From contig NZ_VSLG01000018.1 in assembly GCF_008919445.1 (NCBI RefSeq), positions 1-52,208 on the forward strand: a DNA stretch of 52,208 nucleotides, in the 5' to 3' direction. The position numbers were made by a program, and so were the translations under genes. The DNA is from Serinicoccus kebangsaanensis. GTDB lineage: Bacteria > Actinomycetota > Actinomycetes > Actinomycetales > Dermatophilaceae. Under the pieces are notes generated by a model. The model ran no database searches and had not been told where the DNA came from. It saw only the letters and a list, made by a program, of their open reading frames with translations. Shown one piece after another: positions 7,435 to 52,128 of this stretch. Within the stretch, counting starts at the first letter, position 1, and every line of letters begins with the position of its first letter.

Positions 7435-9909
7435 TCAGCCCACGGCCGCGATCGGCGCTGGGGCGGGCATACCGGAGCCGTCGCGCTTGTCGCCGGTCTC
7501 CGGCAGGTCGACCGCGACCCCGTTGGCTGAGGCCGCCCGGGGAGGAGCGGCGCCGGCCCAGGCCAGGATCAGCTGGTCCTCGCCCTTGAGCAGGCGATGG
7601 CACCGCACCCCGCCGGTCGCCCGCCCCTTCGTGGGGTATGCCCACAGGTCGGTGACCTTGACCGTGCCGGTCTGGGTGCCTGGCAGGGCACCGGCGGCAC
7701 CGGCCACGGTGACGACGGCGTTCTCGACACCGGTGTCGACAGCCCCGAAGCTGACGACGCGTGCGCCGCTGCCCAGCTTGACCCCGGCGATGCCGCCACC
7801 GGAGCGCCCCTGCGGCCGCACCAGCGACGCGGCGAAGCGCAGCAGCTGGGCGTCCGAGGTGACGAAGACGAACTCCTCCTCGCCCGTCACCAGCTCGCGG
7901 GCGCCGACCACCGCGTCGCCCTCCTTGAGCGAGATCACCTCGAAGGAGTCACGGTTGACGGGGTAGTCCGGGTTCACCCGCTTCACCACGCCGTCGCGGG
8001 TGCCGAGCGCCAGGCCCATGCCCTCGCCGGTCAGCGAGCACAGCCCCAGGACCTGCTCGCCCGGGGGCAGGTCGACGAAGGCCGACACGGGCGCGCCACC
8101 GGACAGGTTCGGAGCCCCCGCCGACGGCGGCAGCGCCGGCAGCTCGACGACCGACAGCTTCACCACCCGGCCGGCGCTGGTCAGCAGCCCGATCTCCCCC
8201 CGAGCCGTCGTGCTCACCTGCGAGGTGATGACGTCGTGCTTGGCCCGGTTGCCGCCCACGCCGGGCTCGTCGGCCCCGGCGCGCGCCAGCAGCCCGGTGG
8301 AGGAGAGCAGCACCCGGCACGGGTCGTCCGCGACCTCCAGGTCCATCCCGGAGGCCTTGGACCCGGTCGCCGCGCCAGCAGCAGCGGCCGAGGAGGCCCC
8401 GGTTCCGTCGCTCTCCAGCAGCACGGTGCGTCGCGGGGTGCCGTGCTGCTGCGCCACCTCGGCCAGCTCGTCGGACACGACCTTGAGCAGCAGCTGCTCG
8501 TCCGCCAGGATCGCCTCCAGCGCCTCGATCTCGCGCTCGAGCTCGTCTCGCTCGCTCTCCAGCTCGATCCGGGAGAACTTCGTCAGCTGCCGCAGCGGGA
8601 TCCCGAGGATGTCGTCCGCCTGCGTGGTGGAGAGGTCGAAGACCTGCATCAGCCGGGTCTTGGCCGCGGCGGCGTCGTCGCTGGCCCGGATGAGCTGGAT
8701 GACCTCGTCGATGTCGAGGATCGCCAGCAGCCGGCCCTCGACGATGTGCAGCCGGTCCTTCTTCCTCCCCAACCGGTGCTCGGTCCGGCGCCGGACCACC
8801 TCGGTGCGGAAGTCGACATACACCCCCAGCAGCTCCTTGAGCCCCAGCGTCCGCGGCTGCCCCTCCACCAGCGCCACGTTGTTGATGCCGAAGGACTCCT
8901 CCATCGGCGTCAGCTTGTAGAGCTGCTCCAGCACCGCCTCAGGGTTGAAGCCGGTCTTGATCTCGATGACCAGGTGCAGCCCCTTGGTCCGGTCGGTGAG
9001 GTCGATGATGTCGGAGATGCCCTGCAGCTTCTTGCTCTGCGCCAGCTGCTTGACCTTCTCGATCACCTTCTCCGGCCCGACGAGGTAGGGCAGGTCGGTG
9101 ACGACGATCCCCTTCTTGCGCGGCGTGACGTTCTCGATCCGCGCGGTCGCCCGGGTGCGGAACGACCCACGCCCCGTCTCGTAGGCCTCACGGATGCCGT
9201 CCAGCCCCACGATCCGCCCGCCCAGCGGCAGGTCGGGGCCGGGCACGAAGCGCATCAGCGCCTCCAGGTCCGCCTGAGGGTTCGCGATGAGGTGCCGGGC
9301 CGCGCCGATGACCTCGACCAGGTTGTGCGGCGGCATGTTCGTCGCCATCCCGACCGCGATGCCGGTGGCACCGTTGACCAGCAGGTTCGGGAAGGCCGCG
9401 GGCAGCACGTCGGGCTGGAAGAGCTGGTCGTCGTAGTTCGGGACGTAGTCGACCGTGCTCTCGTCCAGGCTGCCGGTCATGAGCAGCGCGGCCGGCGCCA
9501 TCCGCGCCTCGGTGTAGCGGCTGGCCGCCGGGCCGTCGTCCAGCGACCCGAAGTTGCCGTGCCCGTCCACCAGCGGCAGCCGCATCGTGAACGGCTGCGC
9601 CATCCGCACCATCGCGTCGTAGATCGCCTGGTCCCCGTGCGGGTGGTACTTGCCCATCACCTCACCGACGACGCGCGAGCACTTCACGTGCGCCTTGTCC
9701 GGCCGCAGCCCCAGCTCGTGCATCCCGAAGAGGATGCGCCGCTGCACCGGCTTCAGCCCGTCCCGCGCGTCCGGCAGCGCCCGCGAGTAGATGACCGAGT
9801 AGGCATACTCGAGGAACGCGCCCTCCATCTCCTCGACCGCGTCGACCTCGAGGATCTTCTCCTCGACGTCGAAGAGGTCCTCGCTCTGCGAACGCTTGCG
9901 GCGGGCCAT
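7435..9909 (-). CDS. parC: DNA topoisomerase IV subunit A (ParC-type)
   Basis: 824 residues from ATG 9909 ([14 protein letters not shown]) with AGGAG upstream; a longer in-frame extension to 10032 lacks support. The breakage-reunion domain is complete: [18 protein letters not shown] at 43-60, [12 protein letters not shown] at 87-98, and the catalytic Tyr132 in [10 protein letters not shown]. The long coiled-coil helix ([22 protein letters not shown]) and a C-terminal beta-pinwheel follow. [15 protein letters not shown], rather than the GyrA-type DGDSAAAMRY, argues for ParC. A Gln (93) occupies the position of the quinolone-determining Ser83 of E. coli GyrA. It decatenates chromosomes with ParE, which is not in this window. 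Confidence 0.9.
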
Positions 9910-10047
9910 GGGTCGGTGCTGCTCCTGGTGTCTCGGTGGGGGACAGCGCTCAGGGTATGCCGCCCCGCACCGCCCTCGGAGGAGGCGCGGCGAGATCTGT
10001 GGACACGCGGAGAGGTGGAGAAGCGCTACCACTACCTGGCATCACCC

Positions 10048-10070
10048 GCTACCATGCCATGCATGGTAGC
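10048..10070. promoter_or_regulatory. perfect inverted repeat over the padR start (probable operator)
   Basis: GCTACCATGC at 10048-10057 and GCATGGTAGC at 10061-10070 are exact reverse complements separated by CAT. The second arm contains the padR ATG at 10063. PadR proteins are dimeric winged-helix repressors that commonly bind such repeats in their own promoters, so autorepression is likely (inference). Confidence 0.7.
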
Positions 10071-10401
10071 GAGCCAGGCGGTCACCCAGTTGCGCAAGGG
10101 CGCGCTGCAGCACTGCGTCCTGGCGCTGCTCGAGGACGAGGAGCGCTACGGCTACGAGCTGGTGACCGCGCTGTCCGAGGCCGGTCTCGTGGCCAGCGAG
10201 GGCACGGTCTACCCACTGCTGCGCAGGCTGCGCCAGGTCGAGCTCGTCACCACGGCCTGGCGAGACTCGGCGTCGGGTCCGCCTCGCCGCTACTACACGC
10301 TGACCGACCAGGGCAGGCGGGCGCTGGCGGACTTCCGTCAGGCCTGGGCGGACTTCACCACGACAGTCGACGCGATCCTGCGACGAACGGAGAACTCATG
10401 A
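10063..10401 (+). CDS. PadR family transcriptional regulator
   Basis: 112 residues. The winged helix reads QLRKGALQHCVLALLEDEERYGYELVTALSEAGLVASEGTVYPLLRRLRQVELVTT, with the wing PPRRYYTLTDQGRRAL, the standard PadR N-terminal domain; the short C-terminal helix (FRQAWADFTTTVDAILRR) serves for dimerisation. ATG 10063 has no Shine-Dalgarno sequence and lies inside a perfect palindrome, as does the alternative ATG 10054. The stop overlaps the next start (ATGA at 10398-10401), so it forms a coupled pair with the HAAS-domain membrane protein, the usual partner. Divergent from parC. Confidence 0.9.
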   Translation: MVASQAVTQLRKGALQHCVLALLEDEERYGYELVTALSEAGLVASEGTVYPLLRRLRQVELVTTAWRDSASGPPRRYYTLTDQGRRALADFRQAWADFTTTVDAILRRTENS

Positions 10402-11048
10402 ACGAGATCCAGCAGCAACCGCTCGTGCGGGACTATCTCGCGAGCCTCGACGCCGCATCGACTGGCAGGCTGAGCGCGGTCGACGCGGCTGACCTGCGAG
10501 GTGACATCGAGGCCCATCTCGCGGATGCGCTCCCGGAGGGTGCGAGCGAGGCGCAGGTCCGGCAGGTGCTGGACCGGCTCGGGGAGCCGGAGACGGTGGT
10601 GAGCGCCGCGTCGGTCGAGGAAGAGGACTCAGGCACGAGAGGCGGTGCTGACCCGCGGACGTCGGGCAGGCTCGAGACCGCATCGCTGGTATGCCTGCTG
10701 CTCGCCATCCCGCTGTTCTTCCTCTTCCCGGTGAACCTGCTGCTCTGGGTGGGCGGGCTCGGGCTGCTGCTGTGGTCCCGGCTGTGGGGTGTGGGCGACA
10801 AGGTGTGGGGTGCAGTGGTGCTGGGCGCAGCCCCGTCTGTGGTGGTGTTCGCCTTCGGGGTGAGCTGGGGCTACGGTGCGCAGGAGTGCTCGCAGACCTC
10901 GGGCGGCCCGGTCGAATGCACCTCCTCGGTTTCCTGGATCGCGCCTGCCATCAACGTCGCGCTGATTCTCTACCTGTGCCTGGTCGTCTACACGGTGTTC
11001 CGACTGGTCCGCTCCCTGCGCCGGGCCCGGGTGCAGGTGAGGGTCTGA
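10398..11048 (+). CDS. HAAS-domain integral membrane protein
   Basis: 216 residues. The N-terminal 75 residues (VRDYLASLDAAS...LRGDIEAHLADAL...VRQVLDRLGEPETVV) match the HAAS signalling domain found beside PadR regulators. Then come transmembrane segments near 95-130 and 137-158 and a last one near 178-203, ending in a basic tail. The start overlaps the padR stop by 4 bp, so the two are co-translated. The family probably relays an envelope or antibiotic signal to PadR (inference). Its TGA lies one base from the stop of the convergent deacetylase gene. Confidence 0.8.
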   Translation: MNEIQQQPLVRDYLASLDAASTGRLSAVDAADLRGDIEAHLADALPEGASEAQVRQVLDRLGEPETVVSAASVEEEDSGTRGGADPRTSGRLETASLVCLLLAIPLFFLFPVNLLLWVGGLGLLLWSRLWGVGDKVWGAVVLGAAPSVVVFAFGVSWGYGAQECSQTSGGPVECTSSVSWIAPAINVALILYLCLVVYTVFRLVRSLRRARVQVRV

Positions 11049-11049: not shown

Positions 11050-12780
11050 TCACCCGTCCCGCATGTCCGAGATGGTCGTCATCGTGTAGCCGTTGTTGCG
11101 CATCGTCCGGACGATCTGCGGCAGCGCCTCGGCGGTGTGGTAGCCCCCGATGTGCGCCAGGACGATGCTGCCGCTGGCCGGCAGCGGGCTGGTCGTCCGG
11201 GCCACGATCTCCGCCGCAGACGTGTCCGGGCTCCAGTCGATGGTGTCCCTGGCCCACATCGCGGTGACCGGGAATCCCTCGCTCGCGGCGATGCCGCGCA
11301 CCCGCGCGTCCTGCGAGCCGTAGGGCGGCCGCCACATCGGGGTCACCGGCATACCCGTCAGGTCGCGCAGCACCGGGGTGGCGTCGGCGATCTCGGCGCG
11401 CACCACGGCGTCGGTCATCGTGCGCCGGCACGGCTCGCCGCTCGGTGAGCCGCCGCCGCCACGGACCAGGTCGCAGTGGTGCACCGTGTGGTTGCCGACC
11501 TCGAACAGCTCCGGGTGCGCCGCGATCCGCGCCATCACCGCGCGACCCTCGCTGGTGTTGGCCATCTGGCTGGTCGAGAAGAAGGTGGTGCACACCTGCT
11601 CCTCGACGAGGTAGTCGACCAGCCCGCGGGCACCCTCAAGCCGCCCACCCATGTCGAGGGTGAAGGCCATCTTCTTGCTGTCCGTGCCACCGACGGTGGA
11701 CAGGATCTTCTGGCTCTCCCGGGCGGAGAAGGTGGGTCCGGCCCAGCAGATGCCCCGAGCGCGCTGCACGTCGCGGGCGACGTCGATGGATAGCGCGCTG
11801 GTCCCGCCCATGAGGTATGCCGTGCCCGGGGTCAGCCGGTCGAGGTCGCCCCCGACGCCGCTCGGGATCCCGCCGTGGCGGGCGAGCAGCACCGGTCCGC
11901 GGGTGGTGGCGGTCGCCGGGACCGCGGCCAGGGCGTCGGGGAACGCGGTGCCGGTCGCGATGACGACCCCCGGGCGGCTCGGGCCGAAGACCCGGCGGGA
12001 CACCGCCAGGGCGGTGCCGTAGCGGTTGGTGCCGCTGACCCGCTCGGTCACGGCATACCCCTCCAGCTGGCGACGGACGGACTCGGCGACGGCGGCGCTG
12101 CCACCGACGAGCAGGATCCGCCCCGGGTCGAGCCGGTCGATCTCCGCCGCGACCGCCGGAGGGAGGGAGCCCGGCTCGGTCAGGAGCACCGGCGCGTCCT
12201 GGACGGCGGCGGCCGCACCGGCGGCGAGCGCGTCCGGCCAGTCGGCACCGGTCGAGACGTAGACGACGTCGCTGCCGTCCGGGAAGGCATGCCGGCTGAC
12301 CGCGAGCGCGGTGTCGTAGCGGGTGGTCCCCGACACCCGCTGCACCGACCCCGTGGTGTAGCCGCGCAGCGCCTCGACGACGCGGTTGTCCACGACCCCG
12401 CTGCCCCCGACGACCACGATGCTGCGCGGTTGCAGCCGACGCAGCTCCTGGGCCGTGGAGCCGGGGATGTCCGTGCGCCGGACGAAGAGCACCGGCCCGC
12501 CCTGCCGGTCGGCGGCCGGACCCGCGGAGAGGGCGTCCGGGAAGGTGGCGCCGGCCGCGACGTAGACCACCGGCACGCGTGGGGAGTGGAAGCGCGCGCT
12601 GACCCGCGCGGCGGTGGCGTAGCGGTCGCTGCCGGACAACCGCTCCACCCGGAAGTCGGGATCACCGGCGGTGGGCGCGGCGGAGGGCTGCGGCGTGGTC
12701 GTCGCGGCCGGCGCGGCGAGCGGACCGGCGGCCACCAGGGCCGCGGCGAGCAGGCTGCTGAGCAGGCGGATCGGTCGCAT
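11050..12780 (-). CDS. secreted polysaccharide deacetylase with three cell-wall-binding repeats
   Basis: 576 residues with a Sec signal peptide (MRPIRLLSSLLAAALVAAGPLAAPA). Three CWB2 (cell wall binding repeat 2) units follow, each opening with RxSGxxRYxTAxxVS (near 47, 147, 247) and containing FPDAL/WPDALA and a VVGGS/MGGT strand; they anchor proteins to the wall by binding polymer. The last ~220 residues are a NodB deacetylase: AFTLDMGG with the first Asp, NHTVHH metal ligands, RPPYG, and LAHIGGYHT. The expected role is N- or O-deacetylation of peptidoglycan or a wall glycan. GAGGAG precedes ATG 12780. Confidence 0.9.
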   Translation of the reverse strand: MRPIRLLSSLLAAALVAAGPLAAPAATTTPQPSAAPTAGDPDFRVERLSGSDRYATAARVSARFHSPRVPVVYVAAGATFPDALSAGPAADRQGGPVLFVRRTDIPGSTAQELRRLQPRSIVVVGGSGVVDNRVVEALRGYTTGSVQRVSGTTRYDTALAVSRHAFPDGSDVVYVSTGADWPDALAAGAAAAVQDAPVLLTEPGSLPPAVAAEIDRLDPGRILLVGGSAAVAESVRRQLEGYAVTERVSGTNRYGTALAVSRRVFGPSRPGVVIATGTAFPDALAAVPATATTRGPVLLARHGGIPSGVGGDLDRLTPGTAYLMGGTSALSIDVARDVQRARGICWAGPTFSARESQKILSTVGGTDSKKMAFTLDMGGRLEGARGLVDYLVEEQVCTTFFSTSQMANTSEGRAVMARIAAHPELFEVGNHTVHHCDLVRGGGGSPSGEPCRRTMTDAVVRAEIADATPVLRDLTGMPVTPMWRPPYGSQDARVRGIAASEGFPVTAMWARDTIDWSPDTSAAEIVARTTSPLPASGSIVLAHIGGYHTAEALPQIVRTMRNNGYTMTTISDMRDG

Positions 12781-12905: not shown

Positions 12906-14135
12906 ATGACCAGCACACTGTTCACCGGCGGGACGGTGGTCGACGGGACCCTGGCCCAGCCGTCCGTGGCGGACGTCCTCGTCGTGGACGGGCGGGTGGA
13001 GCAGGTCGGGCCCGGCCTGGGGGTGGAGGCCGACCGCGTCGTCGACTGCACCGGCCAGACCGTGACGCCGGGCCTCTTCGACTGCCACGTCCACGTCATG
13101 TTCGAGCAGCCCAGCATGGTGCGGATCCTGCAGACGCCGTTCAGCCTGCCGTTCTTCGAGGCGGCCGGGCGGCTGCGGCGCACGCTGGCCACCGGCATCA
13201 CCTGGGTCCGCGACGCGGGCGGCGCCGACCTGGGCGTGGCCGAGGCGGTGCGTCGCGGGCTCACCCCCGGGCCGAGGATGCAGATCGCCATCAACCTCAT
13301 CAGCCAGACCGGGGGGCACGGCGACGACTGGCAGCTGTGCGGTGCCCACGTCGGCCTCATGCCCGAGCACCCGGGATGCCCCTCGGCCGTCGTCGACGGA
13401 CCGGTCGAGATGCGCAAGAAGGTGCGCGAGCTGATCCGGGCCGGGGCGGACGTGCTCAAGGTCGCGACCAGCGGGGGAGTGCTCTCGCCACGGAGCAACC
13501 CGCTGCACGGGCACCTGCGCGACGACGAGATCGACGCGCTGGTGAGCGAGGCCAGCGCCGCCGGGCTGCACGTCATGGCGCACGCCCAGGCCACCGACGG
13601 GATCAAGGCCGCCGTCCGCGGCGGCATCCGCTCCATCGAGCACGGCATCTACCTCGACGACGAGGCGATCGAGATGATGCTCGACCGCGGCACCTGGCTG
13701 GTGCCGACCCTCCTCGCGCCGCGCGCCGTGCTCGCCCAGGCGGATGCGGGCATACCTCTCCCGGACGCGGTCGTGGCCAAGGCGCGGATGGTGTCCGAGG
13801 CGCACGACGACTCCGTCCGGCGCGCGATCGAGGCCGGCGTGAAGGTGGCGATGGGCACCGACTCCGGGGTCGGCGAGCACGGCACGAACCTCGACGAGCT
13901 GGCGATCATGCGTGACCTGGGGATGAGCGAGATCGAGGCCTGGCACGCGACCACCAGGGTCGCCGCGGAGCTGCTCGGCGTGGAGGAGGACTACGGCACG
14001 CTGGAGCCGGGCAAGGTCGGCGACGTCGTCGTCCTGGACGGGGCGTATGACGACCTCGCCGGGCTGGGCGACCGTGTCCGGTCGGTCTGGCTGGCGGGGG
14101 AGCCGACGCCGGAGCGCGAGCCCGTCGTCACGTGA
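12906..14135 (+). CDS. metal-dependent amidohydrolase (imidazolonepropionase/Xaa-Pro dipeptidase-like)
   Basis: 409 residues. Diagnostic amidohydrolase motifs appear in order: PGLFDCHVHV (metal ligands HxH), ADVLKVATSGG with the Lys that is carboxylated in the binuclear centre, HVMAHAQ, SIEHGIYL and MGTDSGVGEHG with the last Asp ligand, then LEPGKVGDVVVLDG closing the beta-sandwich. No signal peptide, so cytosolic. The closest families hydrolyse cyclic amides or Xaa-Pro dipeptides; the substrate is unknown. Its stop overlaps the next start (GTGA at 14132-14135), so it is coupled to an ornithine-cyclodeaminase-family gene. That partner hints at imino- or amino-acid catabolism (inference). Confidence 0.85.
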   Translation: MTSTLFTGGTVVDGTLAQPSVADVLVVDGRVEQVGPGLGVEADRVVDCTGQTVTPGLFDCHVHVMFEQPSMVRILQTPFSLPFFEAAGRLRRTLATGITWVRDAGGADLGVAEAVRRGLTPGPRMQIAINLISQTGGHGDDWQLCGAHVGLMPEHPGCPSAVVDGPVEMRKKVRELIRAGADVLKVATSGGVLSPRSNPLHGHLRDDEIDALVSEASAAGLHVMAHAQATDGIKAAVRGGIRSIEHGIYLDDEAIEMMLDRGTWLVPTLLAPRAVLAQADAGIPLPDAVVAKARMVSEAHDDSVRRAIEAGVKVAMGTDSGVGEHGTNLDELAIMRDLGMSEIEAWHATTRVAAELLGVEEDYGTLEPGKVGDVVVLDGAYDDLAGLGDRVRSVWLAGEPTPEREPVVT

Positions 14136-15075
14136 CCGGCGTCGAGGTCCTCGATGCCGCCGAGGTCCGGGCGGCCATCGATCCTGGGGCACTGGTCGAG
14201 GCGCTGCGGGAGGTCTTCGCGGAGGGTGGCGTCGAGGCGCCGGAGCGCAGCCACGTCCCCCTCGACGACCGGCACGCGGCGACACTGCTGCTCATGCCGG
14301 CGTGGCGCAGCGGCGACCTCCTCGGGGTGAAGGTCGCGACCCACCACCCCGGCAACGGGGATCGTGGTCTGCCCGCGATCCACGGCACCTACCTGCTGCT
14401 CGACCACGCCACGGGCGTGCCGCGCGCGATCCTCGACGGTACCGAGCTCACCCGGTGGCGCACCGCCGCGGCCAGCGCCCTGGCCGCCGACCACCTCGCC
14501 CCGGCCGCGGTCGGCGAGCACCTGGTCGTCGGTGCCGGCAACGTTGCGGCCGCCGTGCCGGCCTGCTACGCCGCGGTCCGGGAGGTCGGGCACACGAGCG
14601 TGTGGGCGCGCGACCGCGGCCGGGCTGCGCGACTGGTCGAGCAGCTGCGCGGTCAGGGGTATGCCGCGGACGTCGCCGACGACCTGCGGGCCGCGGTGCG
14701 GCGGGCCGACGTCATCACCACCGCCACCTCGGCGACAAACCCGTTGGTGCTGGGCGAGGACGTGTCGCCAGGGACCCACGTCGACCTCGTCGGCTCGTTC
14801 AGCCCGCAGATGGTCGAGGCGGACGAGGCCCTCATGACCCGCGCCCGGATCGTCGTCGACGTGCCCGAGGCACGGCATACCGCGGGCGAGCTGACCGGTC
14901 CGCTGGGCCGCGGGGTGCTCGACGACGGCGACGTCCGGGTGACCCTCGCCGACGTGGTGAGCGGGCGGGAGGCGGGCCGCCAGAGCGAGGAGCAGGTCAC
15001 CGCCTTCGTGTCGGTCGCACGGCCGCGGAGGACCTTGCCACTGCGGCGCTGGTGCTGCGCTCACGCGAGGGCTGA
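14132..15075 (+). pseudogene. ornithine cyclodeaminase / mu-crystallin family gene, frameshifted near its 3' end
   Basis: From GTG 14132, overlapping the amidohydrolase stop, the frame encodes a full OCD/mu-crystallin fold: LLLMPAWRSGDLLGVKVATHHPGN, GTYLLLDHATGVPRAILDG, TRWRTAAASALAADHLA, the NAD(P) loop VGAGNVAAAVPA, and ITTATSATNPLV. The expected last residues (VGTAAEDLATAALVLRSREG, then TGA at 15073-15075) are present but in another frame. At about 15018-15021 the sequence needs one more G. Uncorrected, the frame runs on into the downstream HNH gene and makes a false 883-residue fusion. The family makes or reduces cyclic imino acids with NAD(P)H. A single-base sequencing error is as likely as real inactivation, since the rest is intact. 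Confidence 0.8.
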
Positions 15076-15274: not shown

Positions 15275-16783
15275 ATGGAGAGAGCAGGGGGCGGCCAGGC
15301 GGCCGGGGCGGACGTGTGGTCCGCGTCGGTGGTGGCTGCTGCCGACCCGCCCGTGTGGGTCGGGGCACCGGACTGGGAGTCGCTGGCGGCCGAGCGGGCC
15401 GCGGACCGGGCAGACGAGGATGCTCGCGGCGGTGAGGGCGCAGGTGTGGTCGACGAGGTCGGGTGGGGGAGCGAGACGGACCTGCTCGACGCGGGGGACT
15501 ATCAGGCGTTCATGGACGAGGTGTTCGACGCGCTGGACGGGGAGCAGCCCGACCTGCCGGTGCGGGAGCTGCAGTCGGGTCTGGACGGCGCGCGCCGGTC
15601 CTTAGCGCGGGCGGGGCTGACCGCGCAGGAGGCGGTCACGGTGCTGGACGAGCCGTTGACGGCGGCGATCGAGGCGGTGGGCAGGTTGGCGACGCAGCTG
15701 CACGCCGTGGGTTACACCCTGGCGCGGGAGGCCGCGTCGCGCGGGCTGCACCAGGACGTGGCGTTGTCGTTGGTGGACTGGTTGCGGGTGCGCTGCCCGT
15801 GGTTGCCGGTCGAGGACGCCGCCCGGATCAAGGACGTCGTGGCGGTGGCGGACTCACCGGCGACCGCCCAGATCGGCGAGGCGGTGGCCGCGGGCACGGT
15901 GCCGTTGCACCGCGGCGCGATGGTGGCCCGCACGATGAAGCGGCTGCGGGGATCGTTGGACCCGGACCAGGCGCAGGCGTATGCCGACATCGCCACTGCG
16001 GCCGCGGCCCGGACCGACCTGTCCGACCGGGACCTGGCCCGGGTGTGCCACCAGCTGGTGGAGGACCTGCTGCACGAGAAGAAGCCGAACGAGCGGGAGC
16101 GCGCCGCGCACGAGCTGCGGCGGGTCACCCGGCGCCGGATCGGTGCGGGCCTGACCCGGTTCACCATCGATGCCCCGGACGGGGCTGCCGCCACGATCAA
16201 CGGCGTGCTCACCGGTGCCCTGGCCGCGCCGGCACCGGTCACGGACGAGCGGGGCCAGATCGTCGAGCCCGACACCAGGTCCGCGCGGCAGCGAGGCTTC
16301 GACGCCCTGCAGACCGTGATCACCCGCGGGGTCGGCAACCCTGGGGCGGGGCCGTCCACGGCCCGTGCCTCGGTGATGCTGGTGATCCCGTTCGACCCCG
16401 ACCGTGGTGTGCCGACCGGTCCGGCGACGACGGCGGTGGGGGACTACGTGCCGCCCCGGCAGGCCGAGGAGCTCGGGTGCAGCGGCGATCTGACCCCGGT
16501 CTGGTTGTCCGCCGACGGGGCACCTCTGGCGCTGGGCCGCACCGCGAGGTTCGCGAGCCCGGCCCAGTGGAAGGCCCTGGCCGTCCGGGACGGCGGCTGC
16601 TCCTTCCCCGGGTGCACCGCCCCACCGCAGTGGTGCGACAGCCACCACCTGGACCACTGGGCCCGCGGCGGCCACACCGACACCGACCGGATGGCCCTGC
16701 TCTGCGGGCGCCACCACACCCACGTCCACCAGCACGACCTGACCGCCACCCTCCGCGGCGGCACCGTCACCTGGCACCTCTGA
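15275..16783 (+). CDS. DUF222 / HNH endonuclease domain protein (13E12 family)
   Basis: 502 residues from ATG 15275; the start is uncertain because no clear ribosome site exists and the frame is open further upstream. The N-terminal two thirds are the helical DUF222 region (DALDGEQPDLPVRELQSGL ... LHQDVALSLVDWLRVRCPWL ... VCHQLVEDLLHEKKPNERERAA). The C-terminus is a complete HNH nuclease: DGGCSFPGCTAPPQWCDSHHLDHWARGGHTDTDRMALLCGRHHTHVH, with paired Cys for structural zinc and the HH/N/H catalytic set. These proteins occur in many copies in actinobacteria; their role is unsettled and a mobile or repeat-associated origin has been proposed. A strong hairpin follows its stop. Confidence 0.85.
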   Translation: MERAGGGQAAGADVWSASVVAAADPPVWVGAPDWESLAAERAADRADEDARGGEGAGVVDEVGWGSETDLLDAGDYQAFMDEVFDALDGEQPDLPVRELQSGLDGARRSLARAGLTAQEAVTVLDEPLTAAIEAVGRLATQLHAVGYTLAREAASRGLHQDVALSLVDWLRVRCPWLPVEDAARIKDVVAVADSPATAQIGEAVAAGTVPLHRGAMVARTMKRLRGSLDPDQAQAYADIATAAAARTDLSDRDLARVCHQLVEDLLHEKKPNERERAAHELRRVTRRRIGAGLTRFTIDAPDGAAATINGVLTGALAAPAPVTDERGQIVEPDTRSARQRGFDALQTVITRGVGNPGAGPSTARASVMLVIPFDPDRGVPTGPATTAVGDYVPPRQAEELGCSGDLTPVWLSADGAPLALGRTARFASPAQWKALAVRDGGCSFPGCTAPPQWCDSHHLDHWARGGHTDTDRMALLCGRHHTHVHQHDLTATLRGGTVTWHL

Positions 16784-17777: not shown

Positions 17778-18757
17778 GCGCTCTCCTTGACGTCGACGTC
17801 GGTGTCGTCGGCCTGCTCGCGGCCGGTGAGGGTGAGGAAGACGTCGTCGAGCGTCGGGCGTCGCATCCCGGCGTCGTGCAGCTCGACCCCGGCCTCACCG
17901 AGGGCGGCCAGCACCTGCTGCAACGTCTGAGGGCCACCGTCCACCGGCACCGAGAGGGTGCGCCCGGCGGAGTCGGCCTGCACGTCGTCGGTCCCGTGCC
18001 GACGCAGCACCTCACGTGCGGCGCCGGACTGCCCGGCGTCGACGAGCGTGACCACGACGCGGTGCCCACCGACCTGCGCCTTGAGCTCGTCCGCGGTGCC
18101 GTCCGCGATGACCGTCCCGTGGTCGATCACGCTGATGTCGTCCGCGAGGTAGTCCGCCTCCTCGAGGTACTGCGTCGTGAGCAGCACCGTCGTGCCCTCG
18201 CCCACGAGGGTCTTGATGACCTCCCACAGCCCGAGCCGGCTGCGCGGGTCCAGCCCGGTCGTGGGCTCGTCCAGGAAGAGGATCTGCGGGTTGTTCACGA
18301 GCGCGCAGGCGAGGTCGATGCGACGACGCATACCCCCGGAGAAGCCCTTGACCGGCCGGTCGCCGGCGTCCACGAGGTCGAACTGCTCCAGCAGCTCCTG
18401 CGCCCGCCCCTTCGCGGTGCTCCCGCCGAGGTGGTAGAGCCGACCCACCATCTCGAGGTTCTCCCGGCCGGTGAGGTGCTCGTCGACCGCGGCATACTGC
18501 CCGCTCGCGCCGATCACCCGGCGCACCCCCTCTGGGTCGCGGAGCACGTCGACGCCGGCGACGGTCGCGGTGCCCGAGTCGGGCCGCAGCAGGGTGTTGA
18601 GCACCTTGACCGCCGTCGTCTTCCCGGCGCCGTTGGGTCCCAGCAACCCCTTGACGGTGCCCTCGGGCACGCTGAGCGACAGCCCGTCCAGGGCGTGCAC
18701 GTCGCCGGAGCGCGAGCGATAGGTCTTGCGCAGGTCCTGCGCCTCGATGATGGTCAC
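17774..18757 (-). CDS. ABC transporter ATP-binding protein (DrrA-like)
   Basis: 327 residues from GTG 18757 with a GAGGTG ribosome site; the longer frame to 18898 has no support. Walker A GPNGAGKTT, signature FSGGMRRRIDLA, Walker B ILFLDEPTTGLD and switch TTQYLEEADYLADDI are all present. The Gln in place of the switch His and the C-terminal domain (VDGGPQTLQQVLAALGEAGVELHDAGMRRPTLDDVFLTLTG) are typical of DrrA-type exporters for daunorubicin and similar compounds. It is first in a two-gene operon with the permease. A TACGAT -10 candidate lies about 31 bp upstream. Confidence 0.9.
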   Translation of the reverse strand: MTIIEAQDLRKTYRSRSGDVHALDGLSLSVPEGTVKGLLGPNGAGKTTAVKVLNTLLRPDSGTATVAGVDVLRDPEGVRRVIGASGQYAAVDEHLTGRENLEMVGRLYHLGGSTAKGRAQELLEQFDLVDAGDRPVKGFSGGMRRRIDLACALVNNPQILFLDEPTTGLDPRSRLGLWEVIKTLVGEGTTVLLTTQYLEEADYLADDISVIDHGTVIADGTADELKAQVGGHRVVVTLVDAGQSGAAREVLRRHGTDDVQADSAGRTLSVPVDGGPQTLQQVLAALGEAGVELHDAGMRRPTLDDVFLTLTGREQADDTDVDVKESA

Positions 18758-20380: not shown

Positions 20381-20386
20381 ACGGTA
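20381..20386 (-). promoter_or_regulatory. -10 element, leaderless start of the lipoprotein gene
   Basis: TACCGT on the minus strand lies 6 bp before ATG 20374 and overlaps one copy of the GTATGCC/GGCATAC motif (20384-20390). Confidence 0.45.
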
Positions 20387-20455
20387 TGCCGGATCGCGCC
20401 TGCCCCGCTGAGCCCGCGGCAGCGCCTGTGGATAACGTGGTGACCGGTGCCGGTG

Positions 20456-34577: not shown

Positions 34578-34728
34578 GGGCCGCCCGGGAACCCCCTCGC
34601 GCGGCCGGGGGTGGATAGGGCATACTCCCGCGCGGCGGACGTGCACCGGCGAGCGGCGACGGGCACAAAATCGGCGGTCTCAGCGTTCAGGGACGACGAG
34701 AGACCACGGCAGAGGCAAGAGAGGCGAG

Positions 34729-40420: not shown

Positions 40421-43246
<2,826 letters not shown>

Positions 43247-46622: not shown

Positions 46623-47648
46623 CTGCGTGGCGGTGGGCTCCGCGACCTCGACGGTGCGCGACACCGGCTGGACGAGCACGAACCGCTCGTCCGCCCGGAA
46701 GCTGACGAACGGGCAGTCGGACCCGATCTCCGGGAGTGTCTGGACGACGTAGGGGGACTCCGCGGTGCCGTCTCCTGCCCCGAGCAGGACGGGTATGCCT
46801 CCGGCCGGTTGGGCCGGCGAGGCGTCGGGGTCCGCCGTCGCACGGCACGAGGCGAGGCCCACCGCGTCCCAGAACTCCGCCCCGTCCTCGGTCGCGGACA
46901 GCCACCCGACGACGGAGGTCGAGGGGGACGCCCCGCCCGCGGCCGGCGCGTCCTCCTCCGCCCCCGTGGCCGCGGCCAGGATGAGCTGGAAGAGGAGCGC
47001 GCTGACCAGCGCCATACCCGCCGTGACGTAGGTCGTCGACGTGAGCGACCGGGTGGCCTTCACCCGGTGGTAGCGCTCCATCTCCATCATGGTGGCGGTG
47101 AGCTGGTGGGCCTGACGCTGCTCCTCGACGAGGGTGTCCCGGGCGCGCGAGAGGGCCGCCCGGGCACCGCCTCCCGCGGTCCCCGGGGTCTGCTGCTGGG
47201 CGAGGATGGCCGCGTCCAGGTGGCCGAGGTCGGCGCGGTACGTCTTCAGCCGGGTCACCAGCTCGGCCTCGGGCCGCTCCTGCGGTGGCTCGTCCCGGAA
47301 GGCCAACCACCAGGACGAGCGGAGCGCCTTCCTCGTCTCGTCCGTGAGCTCCTCGATGGAGACCACCTCGGGTTTGAAGACGTCCGCCACCCTCCAGGCC
47401 ACCTCGCCGAGCGCGGCGATGCCGGTCACGCCGAACACGCCGGCGAGGAGCAGCAGCGGCACCGGCGCGTCCGCCAGCTCTGAGCGGGCGCCGAGCGTCC
47501 CGGCGCCGAAGAGGAAGGTCGCCACCGTCGCGACGACGATGACCAGCCACTTGGCGCTGTTGCGGACCGAGGCGATGGCCTCGTCCCAGGTGTCGACGAC
47601 GGGGTCGAGGACGTCCAGCGACGACCCGGATCCGAGCTCAGCGGCCAC
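46620..47648 (-). CDS. hypothetical membrane protein
   Basis: 342 residues. Hydrophobic helices near 34-53 (WLVIVVATVATFLFGAGTLG), 63-82 and 209-232 (TYVTAGMALVSALLFQLILAAATG) flank a charged, probably helical region (about 90-200: RPEAELVTRLKTYRADLGHLDAAILAQQQ...LVEEQRQAHQLTATMMEMERYHRVKATRSL). A Pro/Ala/Ser-rich C-terminus follows. No family is recognised. The start overlaps the small upstream ORF by 11 bp, which suggests co-expression. Confidence 0.65.
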   Translation of the reverse strand: MAAELGSGSSLDVLDPVVDTWDEAIASVRNSAKWLVIVVATVATFLFGAGTLGARSELADAPVPLLLLAGVFGVTGIAALGEVAWRVADVFKPEVVSIEELTDETRKALRSSWWLAFRDEPPQERPEAELVTRLKTYRADLGHLDAAILAQQQTPGTAGGGARAALSRARDTLVEEQRQAHQLTATMMEMERYHRVKATRSLTSTTYVTAGMALVSALLFQLILAAATGAEEDAPAAGGASPSTSVVGWLSATEDGAEFWDAVGLASCRATADPDASPAQPAGGIPVLLGAGDGTAESPYVVQTLPEIGSDCPFVSFRADERFVLVQPVSRTVEVAEPTATQ

Positions 47649-48895: not shown

Positions 48896-49747
48896 TCAGC
48901 TCTCCAGCGGCTGGTGGTGGTCGCGCCCGGCGACGCCGCGCCGCCAGTAGCCGTCCACCTGCACGGCGCTGGGGGCGAGGGCCTCGCCACCGATCCCGAG
49001 CTCGGCCGCGGTCCGGCGGACCTGCACCATGGCGCCCGCCTCCCCGGCCGCCCAGACGTAGTCGCCGGGGGCCGGTGGCAGGGCCTGCAACGCCTGCGCC
49101 AGGGTGTCCGCCGCCTCGTCCATCAGCCAGGTCACCCGGGCACCGTCGCGCGGGGGGAGCGGCACGATGCCGGTGGCGTCGGGCACCTGGATCACCACCT
49201 CGAGGGGTATGCCCTCCGGCGCCTCCTCGAGCCAGCGGCCGATGGCCGGGATCGCGGTCTCGTCGGCGAGGCAGACGTAGCGCCGGGCGTCCCGCGGCTC
49301 GGTCATCGACCCCCGCGGGCCCAGCAGGCCCACCGTGTCGCCGGGGGAGGCCTGGCTCGCCCACGTGCTGGCCGGTCCCGTGCCGTGCACGACGAAGTCG
49401 ATGCTCACCCGCTGGGCGGCGGTCGCGTCCTCGCCCTCGTCGTCCCCGTCGCTGGTCGCCCGCACCGTGTAGTCGCGCGTCACCGGCCGCTGCGCCCCCT
49501 CCGGGAGCTGGGGGCGGTCGTCCACCACGGTCGGCAGCGTGAGCTGACCGGTCTCCGGGTGCGGGAAGGCGACCTTGACGTGGTCGCCGACGGCCAGGCG
49601 CACCCAGGGGATCGGTGGGGTGCCGTGCTCCAGCGCGAGCGTGATCCGCCGCATCCGCTCGCCCAGGTGCTCGACGGCACTGACGGTGGCGCGCCGGACG
49701 TGCAGCGGGTGCAGCTGGCGGTCGCGCTGCAGGGTGGCGGTGGTCAT
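48896..49747 (-). CDS. siderophore-interacting protein (ferric-siderophore reductase family)
   Basis: 283 residues. The FAD-binding barrel holds RPVTRDYTVRA (R-x-Y-T), VSIDFVVHGTGPASTWASQASPGDTVGLLGPRGSM; the NAD(P)-binding SIP domain holds YVCLADETAIPAIGRWLEEAP and DYVWAAGEAGAMVQVRRTAAELG, ending VDGYWRRGVAGRDHHQ. Such proteins reduce ferric siderophores in the cytosol to release iron. A short acidic insert (SDGDDEGEDATA) follows the FAD motif. No siderophore importer is beside it. About 98 bp separate it from the divergent small gene. Confidence 0.9.
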   Translation of the reverse strand: MTTATLQRDRQLHPLHVRRATVSAVEHLGERMRRITLALEHGTPPIPWVRLAVGDHVKVAFPHPETGQLTLPTVVDDRPQLPEGAQRPVTRDYTVRATSDGDDEGEDATAAQRVSIDFVVHGTGPASTWASQASPGDTVGLLGPRGSMTEPRDARRYVCLADETAIPAIGRWLEEAPEGIPLEVVIQVPDATGIVPLPPRDGARVTWLMDEAADTLAQALQALPPAPGDYVWAAGEAGAMVQVRRTAAELGIGGEALAPSAVQVDGYWRRGVAGRDHHQPLES

Positions 49748-49829: not shown

Positions 49830-49845
49830 TCGTACACTTGTTCGC
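49830..49845 (+). promoter_or_regulatory. LexA-like SOS box touching the start codon
   Basis: TCGTACACTTGTTCGC resembles the actinobacterial LexA consensus (TCGAAC-N4-GTTCGA), with one mismatch in each half. It ends at the base before ATG 49846. Binding is inference. Confidence 0.5.
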
Positions 49846-50211: not shown

Positions 50212-50265
50212 GATCGGCGGTCTCCGCGCGGTGGCGTGGCAGCACAGCAGCACTACCGTGTCCGT

Positions 50266-51099
50266 ATGCCGCACCCGTTCCAGCAGCTCGATGTCTTCTC
50301 CAGCCGCCTCGGCGACGGCAACCCGTTGGCCGTCGTCCTCGGTGCGGACGACCTCACCGGCGAGGCGATGCAGCGCTTCGCGGCCTGGACCAACCTGTCG
50401 GAGACGACCTTCCTGCTGACCCCGAGCCGCGAGGAGGCCGACTACCGGGTGCGCATCTTCACCGCGGTCGAGGAGTTGTCGTTCGCTGGGCACCCGACGC
50501 TCGGCAGCTGCCGGGCATGGCTGAACGCGGGCGGCATGCCGCAGGGTCCGGAGGTGGTGCAGGAGTGCGGGGTCGGGCTGGTGCGGCTGCGCCGGGGCGA
50601 CGACAGCGACCTGGTCTCGTTCGCGGCGCCGCCGCTGCGCCGCTCCGGGCCGGTCGACCCGGAGCTGGCTCGACGGGTGGAGTCGGTCCTCGGTGGCCCG
50701 CCGGTCTCGCTGGCCTGGGGTGACAACGGACCGGGCTGGGTGGTCGCCGAGCTGGAGAGCGGCGCCGCGGTGCGCGAGCTGGTCCCGGTCTTCACGGCGG
50801 GGGAGCCGATCGAGCTGGGAGTCTTCGGCCGGGACGAGCAGGGGTATGAGGTGCGCGCCTTCTTCCGCGGTCCGACGGGCCAGTGCGAGGACCCGGTCAC
50901 CGGCAGCCTGAACGCCGCGATCGCGACGATCCTCGCCGCGCGGGGCGAGCTGCTCCCGGGGCAGCGCTACACCGCGACCCAGGGCACGGCGCTCGGGCGA
51001 CGCGGGCAGGTGGAGGTGGTGCGCGAGGACGACACCCTGTGGGTCGGCGGCCGGGTGGTCAGCGCGATCAGCGGCCAGGTGGACCTCGGCTCCCGGTGA
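50266..51099 (+). CDS. PhzF family isomerase/epimerase
   Basis: 277 residues from ATG 50266 (MPHPFQQLDVFSSRLGDGNPLAVVLGADDL). The PhzF fold has two similar halves. NLSETTFLLTP, with the catalytic Glu, and RIFTAVEELSFAGHPTLGSCRAWL mark the first; RAFFRGPTGQCEDPVTGSLNAAIATIL marks the second. Members isomerise or epimerise small hydroxy or amino acids; the phenazine pathway itself is absent. It lies between two copies of a 29-bp direct repeat. An in-frame extension to 50236 lacks conserved sequence. Confidence 0.9.
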   Translation: MPHPFQQLDVFSSRLGDGNPLAVVLGADDLTGEAMQRFAAWTNLSETTFLLTPSREEADYRVRIFTAVEELSFAGHPTLGSCRAWLNAGGMPQGPEVVQECGVGLVRLRRGDDSDLVSFAAPPLRRSGPVDPELARRVESVLGGPPVSLAWGDNGPGWVVAELESGAAVRELVPVFTAGEPIELGVFGRDEQGYEVRAFFRGPTGQCEDPVTGSLNAAIATILAARGELLPGQRYTATQGTALGRRGQVEVVREDDTLWVGGRVVSAISGQVDLGSR

Positions 51100-51141
51100 C
51101 GCTCCGCGGGAGAGGCGAGCGACCCACCTGGATCCGCAGCA

Positions 51142-51170
51142 GGAGGCGATGCGGCTCCGTGCGCCGATCG
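51142..51170 (+). repeat. 29-bp direct repeat, right copy (orphan gene end after phzF)
   Basis: 27 of 29 identical to 50172-50200. In the same frame, about 18 codons (RATHLDPQQEAMRLRAPIA, then TGA at 51172-51174) echo the end of the 121-residue protein (RANH...EALRLRAPIG), so it looks like a duplicated gene tail. Confidence 0.6.
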
Positions 51171-51175
51171 CCTGA

Positions 51176-51193
51176 GCTCACCGGCCGGTGAGC
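51176..51193. terminator. 18-bp perfect palindrome over the stop of the downstream paralogue
   Basis: GCTCACCGG and CCGGTGAGC abut with no loop and include the minus-strand stop (TCA at 51178-51180). It may act as a terminator for this gene and for phzF; with no spacer, a protein-binding site is also possible. Confidence 0.4.
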
Positions 51194-51642
51194 CGCCAGG
51201 TGAGCAGCTCGCCGAAGGCCGTGACGTCACCGGCCAGTCCGAACAGCTCGGTGCGGTCGATCAGCACCTGGTAGTCGTCCGGTGGGGCGGCTCCAGGCCC
51301 GTCCGGGCCGCCGGAGGACGGTGCCGTGGCTCCCAGCACAACCGGCAGGCCGCTGCCCCGGAGGACGGGCACCAGGTCGCGGGTCACCTCGTCCTGGCGC
51401 AGCATCCGCAGCGGCACCGGGAGCTCCGCGACCATCCGGCGCCAGGCGCGGCGCTGCCCGACGACGCTGTGCGAGGTCTCGAAGAGGGGACAGCGCGGGC
51501 CGCCGGTCCTCCGGTTCGCCGCGTGCTCCAGCTCGGCGAACGGACCGGTGGAGACGGCGTAGACCCCGATGGCGAGTCGGACGGGTGCGGCCACCACCTC
51601 AGCGTAGGCGGACTCTCCGTCCACTGACAGCCTCGATGTCAT
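51178..51642 (-). CDS. hypothetical protein, divergent paralogue of its upstream neighbour
   Basis: 154 residues from ATG 51642. LAIGVYAVSTGPFAELEHAANRRTGGPRCPLFETSHSVVGQRRAWRRMVAELPVPLRML and YQVLIDRTELFGLAGDVTAFGELLTWRL align along their length with the neighbour's IIGVYDAKGG...CSLCDITHSPVRRKKAWDQM and TVLLDRAELDELGGDVARFEEALRQRL. The second Cys of the neighbour's CxxC is replaced here by Phe. No known family is assigned and no signal or membrane segment is seen. It is 58 bp downstream of the paralogue in the same direction. Confidence 0.65.
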   Translation of the reverse strand: MTSRLSVDGESAYAEVVAAPVRLAIGVYAVSTGPFAELEHAANRRTGGPRCPLFETSHSVVGQRRAWRRMVAELPVPLRMLRQDEVTRDLVPVLRGSGLPVVLGATAPSSGGPDGPGAAPPDDYQVLIDRTELFGLAGDVTAFGELLTWRLTGR

Positions 51643-51700
51643 CTGGCAGCCCCCTCGAGCAGGCTGACAGGTGACGAACCGGCTGGCAGTCGGACATCGG

Positions 51701-52128
51701 TCAGGCCAGGTCGTGGTCCGCGAGGCGTTGGCGCAGCGCCTCCTCGAAGCGCGCGACGTCGCCCCCCAGCTCGTCCAGCTCCGCACGGTCGAGCAGCACG
51801 GTATGCCCGGTCGCGGTGTCGCTGCCGGTGCCGGTGTCGGCGGCGTCACCGGTGGTCCCGGCGAGCAGCACCACCGGAGCACCGGCCTGCTCGACCGCGG
51901 CCTCCTGCTCTGAGGTGAGCTCGTTGAGGTGCCGCAGCTCGATCGTGGCGTCCATCCTGGCCGCCATCTGGTCCCACGCCTTCTTGCGCCGGACCGGCGA
52001 GTGCGTGATGTCGCACAGCGAGCAGTGCGCCGTCCCCCGGATCTTCCCCCACGCGTAGGCGGCCTCACCGAGCACGCCCCCTTGGCGTCGTAGACGCCGA
52101 TGATCGTGGGACGTCGTCGCGTGCTCAT
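51701..52128 (-). pseudogene. hypothetical CxxC protein gene, frameshifted near its 5' end
   Basis: ATG 52128 begins MSTRRRPTIIGVYDAKG, then the frame turns to nonsense. The expected continuation GVLGEAAYAWGKIRGTAHCSLCDITHSPVRRKKAWDQMAARMD...HTVLLDRAELDELGGDVARFEEALRQRL is in the next frame down to the stop at 51701. One extra G in a G5 run (C5 at 52077-52081, plus strand) restores about 142 residues. The CSLCDITHS motif suggests a metal or redox site. Family function is unknown to me. The 80 bp before the window end hold no gene. Confidence 0.65.

What the first reader, a model, noticed from the sequence alone, without database searches (positions are those of the whole stretch)
7466..51807. 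Genome-signature 7-mer GTATGCC/GGCATAC kept at the cost of rare codons
Copies start at 7466, 7636, 9802, 9955, 10689, 11348, 11815, 12052, 13749, 14659, 14874, 15979, 18491, 19823, 20384, 21573, 21884, 23046, 23271, 23286, 26790, 26947, 28835, 29219, 29782, 31616, 32263, 34049, 34619, 35537, 38206, 38323, 39241, 39481, 39657, 42826, 46793, 49207, 50264 and 51801. At 72% GC (assumed) about 4 would be expected on both strands. The motif appears in different reading frames as Tyr-Ala (TAT GCC), Gly-Ile-Pro (GGC ATA CC), Ala-Tyr (GCA TAC), His-Thr (CAT ACC), Gly-Met-Pro and Val-Cys. No single mutation type explains this, so selection on the DNA word (binding, recombination, segregation or uptake signal) is plausible. 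The alternative word GTACGCC/GGCGTAC was noticed only twice in the same span. The two orientations are nearly equal.
Basis: partly seen in the sequence, partly recalled or inferred. Interest (0 to 1): 0.75.

Follow-up and report, generated by a model that had tools for sequence, protein, structure and literature searches.

The report
Genome-wide DNA signature words with dialects
This actinobacterium carries thousands of copies of one short DNA word, its relatives carry the same word or single-letter "dialects" of it, and the pattern looks like the DNA-recognition words some other bacteria use to pick out their own kind's DNA.

Summary
GTATGCC occurs 41 times in the window (1.8 expected) and 2,643 times in the 3.5 Mb genome, equally on both strands, against 124 for the reversed word. 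It is enriched in all six frames over a codon-preserving null (305 vs 40) and holds 145 of 291 TAT codons in the genes sampled. No leading/lagging bias was seen. Of 186 genomes of the family 96 carry it by my thresholds; others carry a one-letter variant, GTACGCCG (to 4,185 copies) or GGATGCCG (to 4,480), and two genomes of one genus carry two words. GGATGCCG also fills genomes of a second family and named Microbacterium, Cryobacterium and Herbiconiux genomes. Best explanation (0.5): a self-DNA recognition word for DNA uptake/recombination, working like Neisseria DNA uptake sequences, with dialects, in Gram-positive actinomycetes. No reader protein was found: ComEC and T2SSF pilus genes are near-universal, a type IVa pilus marker is rare, RecC does not track the word. 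Rivals: HIP1-like repair word, Chi-like site, nucleoid word. Ten literature searches found no description.

The parts
127..133 (-).
7466..7472 (-). GTATGCC copy, in gyrase/topo IV subunit A-like gene
7636..7642 (+). GTATGCC copy
9802..9808 (-). GTATGCC copy
9955..9961 (+). GTATGCC copy
10689..10695 (+). GTATGCC copy, outside called genes
11348..11354 (-). GTATGCC copy
11815..11821 (+). GTATGCC copy
12052..12058 (-). GTATGCC copy
13749..13755 (-). GTATGCC copy
14659..14665 (+). GTATGCC copy
14874..14880 (-). GTATGCC copy
15979..15985 (+). GTATGCC copy
18491..18497 (-). GTATGCC copy
19823..19829 (-). GTATGCC copy
20384..20390 (+). GTATGCC copy
21573..21579 (-). GTATGCC copy
21884..21890 (+). GTATGCC copy
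23046..23052 (-). GTATGCC copy
23271..23277 (-). GTATGCC copy, forms an inverted pair with 23286-23292 (8 bases between)
23286..23292 (+). GTATGCC copy, partner of 23271-23277
26790..26796 (+). GTATGCC copy
26947..26953 (-). GTATGCC copy
28835..28841 (+). GTATGCC copy
29219..29225 (+). GTATGCC copy
29782..29788 (+). GTATGCC copy
31616..31622 (-). GTATGCC copy
32263..32269 (+). GTATGCC copy
34049..34055 (+). GTATGCC copy
34619..34625 (-). GTATGCC copy
35537..35543 (-). GTATGCC copy
38206..38212 (+). GTATGCC copy, outside called genes
38323..38329 (-). GTATGCC copy, outside called genes
39241..39247 (+). GTATGCC copy
39481..39487 (+). GTATGCC copy
39657..39663 (-). GTATGCC copy
42826..42832 (+). 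GTATGCC copy, in aconitase gene
46793..46799 (+). GTATGCC copy
49207..49213 (+). GTATGCC copy
50264..50270 (+). GTATGCC copy
51801..51807 (+). GTATGCC copy
134..7465 (.). motif-free stretch of 66% GC with an RNA-repair Pnkp/Hen1 pair and other genes of low third-position GC, probably acquired
   Evidence: largest gap in the window, p 0.08 against random placement

Best explanation
GTATGCC (consensus GGTATGCCG in this genome, GTATGCCG in many relatives) is a genome-wide recognition word by which DNA of the same or a near species is told from foreign DNA at a step of gene exchange, most likely DNA uptake through the ComEA/ComEC-Tad route or the recombination that follows. A sequence-reading protein favours fragments that carry the word; because such fragments are taken up and recombined more often, the word accumulates everywhere that proteins tolerate it (molecular drive), in all frames and both orientations. 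Shown: the word, its enrichment in all frames, lack of strand bias in one genome, the dialects, a genus with two words at once, presence of ComEC/ComEA and pilus genes. Inferred: that uptake is the step, that a reader protein exists, and that drive rather than direct selection built it up.
For: 2,643 copies, one per 1.3 kb, equal on both strands. Six-frame enrichment over a codon null, 305 vs 40, 8.6- and 11.1-fold for GTATGCCG in two genomes. No leading-strand bias: 144 vs 135 in 400 kb around dnaA of a sister genome. Dialects: in 186 family genomes 93 labelled T (GTATGCC), 11 C (GTACGCCG), 5 G (GGATGCCG), 3 T+G, 74 none, by ad hoc thresholds. In eight sampled genomes the own word is 4.0 to 11.5 times its codon null and the other dialect words 0 to 1.5 times, except in genus g40, where G092 is enriched for both and G090 (G) also for GTATGCCG (9 vs 0.7). 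Genus g40: G090/G091 mainly GGATGCCG (4,480/3,619), G092/G093 both words (2,195/2,099 and 1,282/1,255). In genus g58, G140 lacks GTATGCC (40 copies) but has 1,463 GTACGCCG. ComEC in 180 of 186, a ComEA match in 44 of 44 ComEC loci examined, T2SSF genes in 183 of 186, taken as Tad type because PilM_2 is rare. Two stretches poor in the word look acquired: window 134-7465 with Pnkp/Hen1 genes (0 copies), and 40 kb of sister genome G007 (6 copies in L179-L180), with TniQ and Mu-type transposase genes in L179. Passages read on DUS: eight dialects, about 900-3,300 copies per genome, five genomes of the family without an abundant one; no orientation bias; one orientation commoner in genes, as here, 177 vs 119 and 146 vs 100.
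Against: No reader found. ComEC/ComEA/T2SSF genes do not separate genomes with and without a word, because nearly all have them. Residues tracking T versus C dialect: ComEA 4 of 177 columns against 18 of 949 in the LeuS control; ComEC 46 of 771, but with only 4 C rows, so inconclusive. A marker of type IVa pili, whose minor pilin ComP reads DUS in Neisseria, is rare (PilM_2 in 7 of 186, not in this genome). Unlike DUS and USS the word is not enriched outside genes (0.58 vs 0.76 per kb; 50 vs 61.9 and 46 vs 49.1 expected), shows no gene-end bias and forms only 5 close pairs in 892 kb, 4 of them inverted. For DUS, words with few mismatches are reported over-represented; here 12 of 21 one-mismatch words are under 0.8 of expectation and 6 over 1.2. 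Low-GC3 genes are not consistently poorer in the word. The strand-bias test lacks a positive control: no 8-mer was clearly strand-biased in that sample (smallest p 9e-5 among 4,019 words). Nothing I read shows natural transformation in this family.
Confidence: 0.5

Rival explanations
1. A HIP1-like word made by biased repair or by a modification enzyme: a methyltransferase plus mismatch repair, or a sequence-specific repair bias, converts neighbouring words into this one on the chromosome, with no role in uptake.
For: HIP1 of cyanobacteria is likewise an over-represented 8-mer with exceptional genomes and replacement words, and a methyl-dependent repair ratchet was proposed for it (abstract and passages). 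The word is a near-palindrome (GGTATGCC against GGCATACC), one transition from the palindrome GGCATGCC, and GCATGCC is depleted (66 vs 135.7).
Against: The word itself is not palindromic. Gains come from several neighbours and mutation classes. Dialects change letters at positions 2 and 4. The sum of GCATGCC and GTATGCC (403) far exceeds the expected sum (156.5), so that one conversion cannot be the source.
Confidence: 0.2
2. A Chi-like site that steers a recombination nuclease (RecBCD, AddAB or AdnAB type) during repair.
For: Short non-palindromic word, genome-wide, differing between lineages, scarce in two acquired-looking stretches.
Against: RecC, the subunit that reads Chi in RecBCD (recalled), does not track the word: T with RecC 43, T without 53, no T with RecC 46, neither 44; 0 of 9 word-rich g55 genomes have RecC and 15 of 16 word-less g52 genomes do. 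No leading-strand bias (without a positive control). AdnAB/AddAB were not searched.
Confidence: 0.14
3. A chromosome-architecture word bound by a nucleoid, segregation or condensin-type protein.
For: Broad coverage of the chromosome, about one per 1.3 kb, near-random spacing.
Against: No strand polarity, which KOPS- and AIMS-type words show (KOPS recalled, AIMS seen only in a search listing). An architecture role does not predict fast one-letter dialects or absence in close relatives such as G023 of the same genus (43+44 copies).
Confidence: 0.1
4. An ordinary by-product of codon usage, amino-acid composition or repeats.
For: Most coding copies spell Tyr-Ala or Ala-Tyr.
Against: Within-gene synonymous shuffling leaves 40 of 305; all six frames enriched; TAT is used for Tyr in 93% of G_GCC contexts against 4% elsewhere; outside genes the word is also present at 0.58 per kb.
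Confidence: 0.02

Closest known systems
DNA uptake sequence (DUS) dialects of Neisseriaceae
   Same: Short non-palindromic word, thousands of copies, both orientations, no replication bias, one- or few-letter dialects between relatives, some relatives without one, competence genes present (passages).
   Different: High-GC Gram-positive hosts; type IVa pilus marker absent here and rare in the family, so a ComP-type reader is unlikely; not enriched outside genes, close pairs rare; uptake bias untested.
Uptake signal sequence (USS) of Pasteurellaceae
   Same: Genome-wide short core, two variants in one family, drive-like accumulation.
   Different: No long AT-rich flanking consensus; flanks here inform mainly positions -1 and +8; no gene-end bias.
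HIP1, highly iterated palindrome of cyanobacteria
   Same: Over-represented word of unknown function, low or replaced in some lineages.
   Different: Not palindromic; a link to orphan methyltransferases was not tested.
Chi sites
   Same: Short oriented words that differ between lineages (recalled).
   Different: No strand bias seen, no link to RecC, enrichment far above codon expectation.
Flp/Tad-dependent transformation of Micrococcus luteus
   Same: comEA, comEC and T2SSF (probably Tad) genes are present in this family.
   Different: The two M. luteus papers looked into hold no 'uptake sequence' (0 hits).

Membership tests
DUS/USS-type uptake word | Short non-palindromic word with hundreds to thousands of copies above chance | tested here: met
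   2,643 copies vs 124 reversed control
DUS/USS-type uptake word | Both orientations, no replication-strand bias | tested here: met
   1,323/1,320; 144 leading vs 135 lagging, 95% interval 0.46-0.58, in 400 kb of one sister genome, no positive control
DUS/USS-type uptake word | Dialects between relatives | tested here: met
   GTATGCCG, GTACGCCG, GGATGCCG
DUS/USS-type uptake word | Competence machinery in the same genomes | tested here: met
   ComEC 180 of 186, T2SSF 183 of 186, ComEA match in 44 of 44 loci; does not discriminate
DUS/USS-type uptake word | Scarce in mobile and foreign DNA | tested here: inconclusive
   Two poor stretches; five Microbacterium phages 31 GGATGCCG in 166 kb vs reversed control 9, host dialect not checked; low-GC3 genes not consistently poorer
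DUS/USS-type uptake word | Enriched outside genes, partly as inverted pairs | tested here: not met
   0.58 vs 0.76 per kb; 50 vs 61.9 and 46 vs 49.1 expected; 5 close pairs in 892 kb. A usual, not a defining, trait
Neisseria DUS proper | Read by the type IVa minor pilin ComP | tested here: not met
   Judged by the pilus marker PilM_2 only: 7 of 186, absent from this genome; ComP itself was not searched
DUS/USS-type uptake word | DNA with the word is taken up better | not testable with these tools
   Needs transformation assays
Chi site | Orientation biased toward the leading strand | tested here: not met
   one genome, no positive control
Chi site | Recognised by RecBCD/AddAB | tested here: inconclusive
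   RecC does not track the word; AddAB/AdnAB not tested
HIP1-type word | Palindrome | tested here: not met
   GTATGCC differs from its reverse complement GGCATAC (sequence itself)
HIP1-type word | Contains sites of orphan methyltransferases | not tested
   No methylation data, no methyltransferase search
KOPS/AIMS segregation words | Strong strand polarity from origin to terminus | tested here: not met
   one genome, no positive control

The most novel reading that the evidence does not exclude
Actinomycetes of at least two families have a self-recognition code for gene exchange: a genome-wide 8-letter word with one-letter dialects, read by a protein unlike the known pilin readers and working with Tad pili and ComEA/ComEC, so that who can exchange DNA with whom can be read from the genome. 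Further words seen in samples (CCCCTTCG, CGATGCGG, GGATGCGC, GGACGATG) suggest the code reaches further.
Probability: 0.4. Interest if true: 0.9.

Novelty: new variant of a known kind. Interest (0 to 1): 0.8.

Why it matters
Uptake words with dialects are known to me from two Gram-negative families only (recalled; the papers looked into treat Neisseriaceae and Pasteurellaceae). If this is one, it is an independent origin in Gram-positive bacteria that mostly lack type IVa pili, with over 100 genomes, three main dialects and a genus caught between two. That makes open questions testable: whether drive or selection builds such words, how a reader changes specificity, and whether dialects bound gene exchange. 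It would also tell which environmental actinomycetes are likely to be naturally transformable. If it is not an uptake word, it is a large unexplained force on codon choice: half of the TAT codons in the genes sampled sit in it.

Tried and rejected
Codon or composition artefact: rejected by the within-gene shuffle. Single mutation class (for example deamination of GCATGCC or GTACGCC): rejected, see counts. Transcription terminator: 5 close pairs in 892 kb. Even spacing as a hint of function: spacing is near random, CV 0.90-1.07 in three stretches and 1.51 in the stretch with an island. KOPS/AIMS and orientation-biased Chi: no bias; GC skew around that origin is nearly zero, so replication arms were set by dnaA alone, and no 8-mer gave a clear strand bias as a positive control. 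RecC as determinant: no link. ComEC, T2SSF or type IVa pili as determinant by presence: no; the three genomes without T2SSF (G080, G125, G127) are among those without a word, too few to weigh. ComEA/ComEC residues tracking T versus C dialect: ComEA like the LeuS control; ComEC has more differing columns (46 of 771 against 18 of 949) but only 4 C rows, one column standing out (V in 4 of 4 C, 1 of 16 T); my C rows there included G061 and my T rows G064, G087 and G097, some of which one search leaves unlabelled. One pilus gene cluster from each of four genomes: each has Tad-like genes, those of G023 (no word) and G090 less like this genome's than those of G145; nothing decisive. Low-GC3 genes poorer in the word: not seen in this genome, slight in a sister. 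Words beyond the three dialects in word-less genomes: CCCCTTCG, CGATGCGG, CGTACGTC, GTACGGCG stand out in samples but were not counted in whole genomes. Codon-null tops such as CGAGCAG recur in many genomes and were taken as generic; several word-less genomes (for example G023, G094) showed no clear word. The output was cut in the middle and I used only what was shown. Some T-type genera (g30, g39, g43) fall wholly or partly under 'none' because the reversed control word is also common there, so 93 is a low count; G033 (T+G) and G182 (C) are borderline. Literature: ten searches listed no paper on such a word in actinomycetes; only open-access PMC papers are held and no preprints. Papers seen: passages of PMC4322843, PMC3630211, PMC4390886, PMC1939737, PMC6370729; a term search without hits in PMC12849477; first part of three of PMC2346458; the others in search listings only.

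Full report
WHAT WAS CHECKED. Dinucleotide shuffles give 1.77 on average and at most 7 in 100 tries; by z-score it is the most over-represented 7-mer of the window. The window is one 52 kb contig of a 3.50 Mb, 37-contig genome. In that genome the word occurs 1,323 times forward and 1,320 times in reverse, against 67 and 57 for the word read backwards. The nearest named relative by the aconitase gene of the window is Ornithinimicrobium pekingense (84% amino-acid identity), followed by Janibacter, unnamed Intrasporangiaceae and Knoellia at 79-80%.

ANATOMY OF THE WORD. In 452 kb of this genome (20 stretches and the window) there are 337 copies against 20.8 expected; the preferred context is G before (70%) and G after (63%), while A after the word is nearly excluded (4 of 337). 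The consensus here is GGTATGCCG. In several other genera the last G is invariant in the sample (23 of 23 in G166, 20 of 20 in G188). Of the 21 one-mismatch words 12 are under 0.8 of expectation, of different mutation classes (GCATGCC 66 vs 135.7, GTCTGCC 70 vs 122.3, GTACGCC 20 vs 60.4), and 6 are over 1.2 (GTATGTC 31 vs 8.0, GTAGGCC 122 vs 54.5).

NOT A CODON EFFECT. With genes called in 472 kb, 305 copies are coding; shuffling synonymous codons within each gene leaves 40 on average and 62 at most in 200 tries; all six strand/phase combinations exceed their null 4 to 12 times. In these genes 145 of 291 TAT and 47 of 86 ATA codons lie in the word. Tyr is TAT in 142 of 153 cases between G and GCC, but in 65 of 1,519 where neither flank fits; the sister genome G007 shows the same (110 of 132 against 44 of 1,452). 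In an alignment of LeuS from 36 genomes the word appears at 11 distinct aligned sites, one of them in 13 genomes; the same sites in other genomes hold various other words and at several sites other amino acids.

DISTRIBUTION. Among 186 genomes of the family many hold 700 to 4,900 copies and others only background. Within genus g1, 30 of 31 have it by the thresholds; G023 does not. In the 22 genomes of other families of the order sampled it was near background; apart from one genome with 9 copies (control 3) the highest ratio was 210 vs 83.

DIALECTS. Sampling 20 to 100 kb of genomes without the word showed other over-represented words, some one letter away. Whole-genome counts confirmed two. 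GTACGCCG: 4,185 in G145, 3,903 in G146, 2,618 in G060, 2,529 in G069, 2,366 in G059, 2,216 in G071, 2,111 in G144, 1,463 in G140, then a tail (1,359 in G070, 1,125 in G068, 1,011 in G171, 870 in G198, 865 in G168) down to a background from about 30 upward. GGATGCCG: 4,480 in G090, 3,949 in G201, 3,838 in G074, 3,816 in G073, 3,619 in G091, with a background of about 240 to 1,340. G092 and G093, of the same genus as G090 and G091, hold both GGATGCCG (2,195; 2,099) and GTATGCC (1,282; 1,255). With ad hoc thresholds on forward counts over reversed control (T at least 3-fold and 300 copies, G at least 6-fold, C at least 5.5-fold) the 186 genomes fall into T 93, C 11, G 5, T+G 3 and none 74; the T count is low because in some genera the reversed control word is common, and G033 and G182 are borderline. 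Codon-shuffle tests on eight sampled genomes show the own word at 4.0 to 11.5 times its null, spread over most frames, and the other dialect words at 0 to 1.5 times; the exceptions lie in genus g40, G092 with both words and G090 with 9 GTATGCCG copies vs 0.7.

BEYOND THE FAMILY. In 297 genomes drawn across the order, GGATGCCG is at 7 times its reversed control or more in 15 of 22 genomes of family f19 (up to 4,831 copies); outside f1 and f19 one genome, G249 with 534 copies, reaches that ratio. Of 20 named genomes, three stand out (control in brackets): Microbacterium MAG 2,921 (177), Cryobacterium 1,776 (214), Herbiconiux solani 1,704 (334); the other 17, Microcella with 377 (146) among them, lie at 1.1 to 3.9 times control. 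So the same kind of word occurs in a second family.

POSITION AND ORIENTATION. In 400 kb on both sides of dnaA in the closed sister genome G007 there are 144 copies on the leading and 135 on the lagging strand (95% interval 0.46 to 0.58). No 8-mer was clearly strand-biased in that sample (smallest p 9e-5 among 4,019), so the test has no positive control. Spacing is close to random. Close pairs are rare: 5 in 892 kb. The word is slightly scarcer outside genes than inside, unlike DUS and USS. In genes GTATGCC is commoner than its complement, 177 vs 119 and 146 vs 100, without gene-end bias.

FOREIGN DNA. The first 7.3 kb after position 133 of the window lack the word; they hold a Pnkp/Hen1 RNA-repair pair and a small gene matching an aminoglycoside adenylyltransferase family, at 66% GC (gap p 0.08). 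Forty kb of G007 (L179, L180) hold 6 copies, and L179 carries TniQ and Mu-type transposase genes (largest gap of that region p 0.02). Five Microbacterium phages hold 31 GGATGCCG in 166 kb (reversed control 9), about 0.19 per kb, against about 0.77 per kb in the named Microbacterium genome; the dialect of their own hosts was not checked. Against this, genes of low GC3 are not consistently poorer in the word.

ComEC is in 180 of 186 genomes, ComEA matches lie in all 44 ComEC regions examined, T2SSF genes in 183 of 186, which I take as Tad type because PilM_2 of type IVa pili is in 7 of 186 and not here. RecC is in 89 of 186 and does not track the word. ComEA columns follow the dialect no more than a LeuS control does; ComEC is inconclusive with 4 C rows.

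COMPARISON AND VERDICT. In the passages read, DUS dialects in Neisseriaceae show eight variants, about 900 to 3,300 copies per genome, and five genomes of the family without an abundant one; DUS/USS have no orientation bias. Micrococcus luteus, an actinobacterium, transforms through Flp/Tad pili, and ComEA/ComEC occur with tad clusters frequently in the actinobacterial lineage. HIP1 is another known kind of word. Fast one-letter dialects, a genus with two dialects, tolerance of codon and amino-acid cost, and lack of strand bias fit a self-recognition word spread by biased exchange better than a Chi, segregation or nucleoid word. I therefore say it works like a DUS (0.5) and do not file it as one.

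Noticed in passing
window 531-4503 (-): Pnkp (kinase-phosphatase-ligase) and Hen1 methyltransferase genes side by side, a bacterial RNA-repair pair, in a motif-free stretch of lower GC.
   Followed up: partly
window 6759-7412 (-): Match to the aminoglycoside-2''-adenylyltransferase family, over the Pfam cut-off but modest (E 3e-6); described only.
   Followed up: no
L195, L196, L055 (G147); L048 (G120); L086 (Janibacter indicus): A different word, CCCCTTCG, stands out in genomes without GTATGCC: 45 vs 7.5 codon-null in G147, 11 vs 1.3 in G120, 11 vs reversed control 2 in 22.7 kb of Janibacter.
   Followed up: partly
L149 (Demequina soli): GGACGATG 18 copies in 22.8 kb, reversed control 0; possibly another genome word.
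   Followed up: no
L144 (Microcella), L164 (Herbiconiux): GGATGCGC 14 copies each in 22.8 kb, reversed control 1 and 2; close to the GGATGCCG dialect.
   Followed up: no
L122 (Kribbella antibiotica): GTACGGCG 26 and GTACGCCG 17 copies in 22.7 kb, reversed controls 1 and 0; in genes still 18 vs 3.4 and 15 vs 2.7 over a codon null.
   Followed up: no
L022, L039, L040 (G139): CGATGCGG 33 coding copies vs 6.9 codon-null, in a genome with none of the three dialects.
   Followed up: no
L179-L180 (G007 about 2.143-2.183 Mb): Stretch with TniQ and Mu-type transposase genes (in L179) holding only 6 copies of the word in 40 kb.
   Followed up: partly
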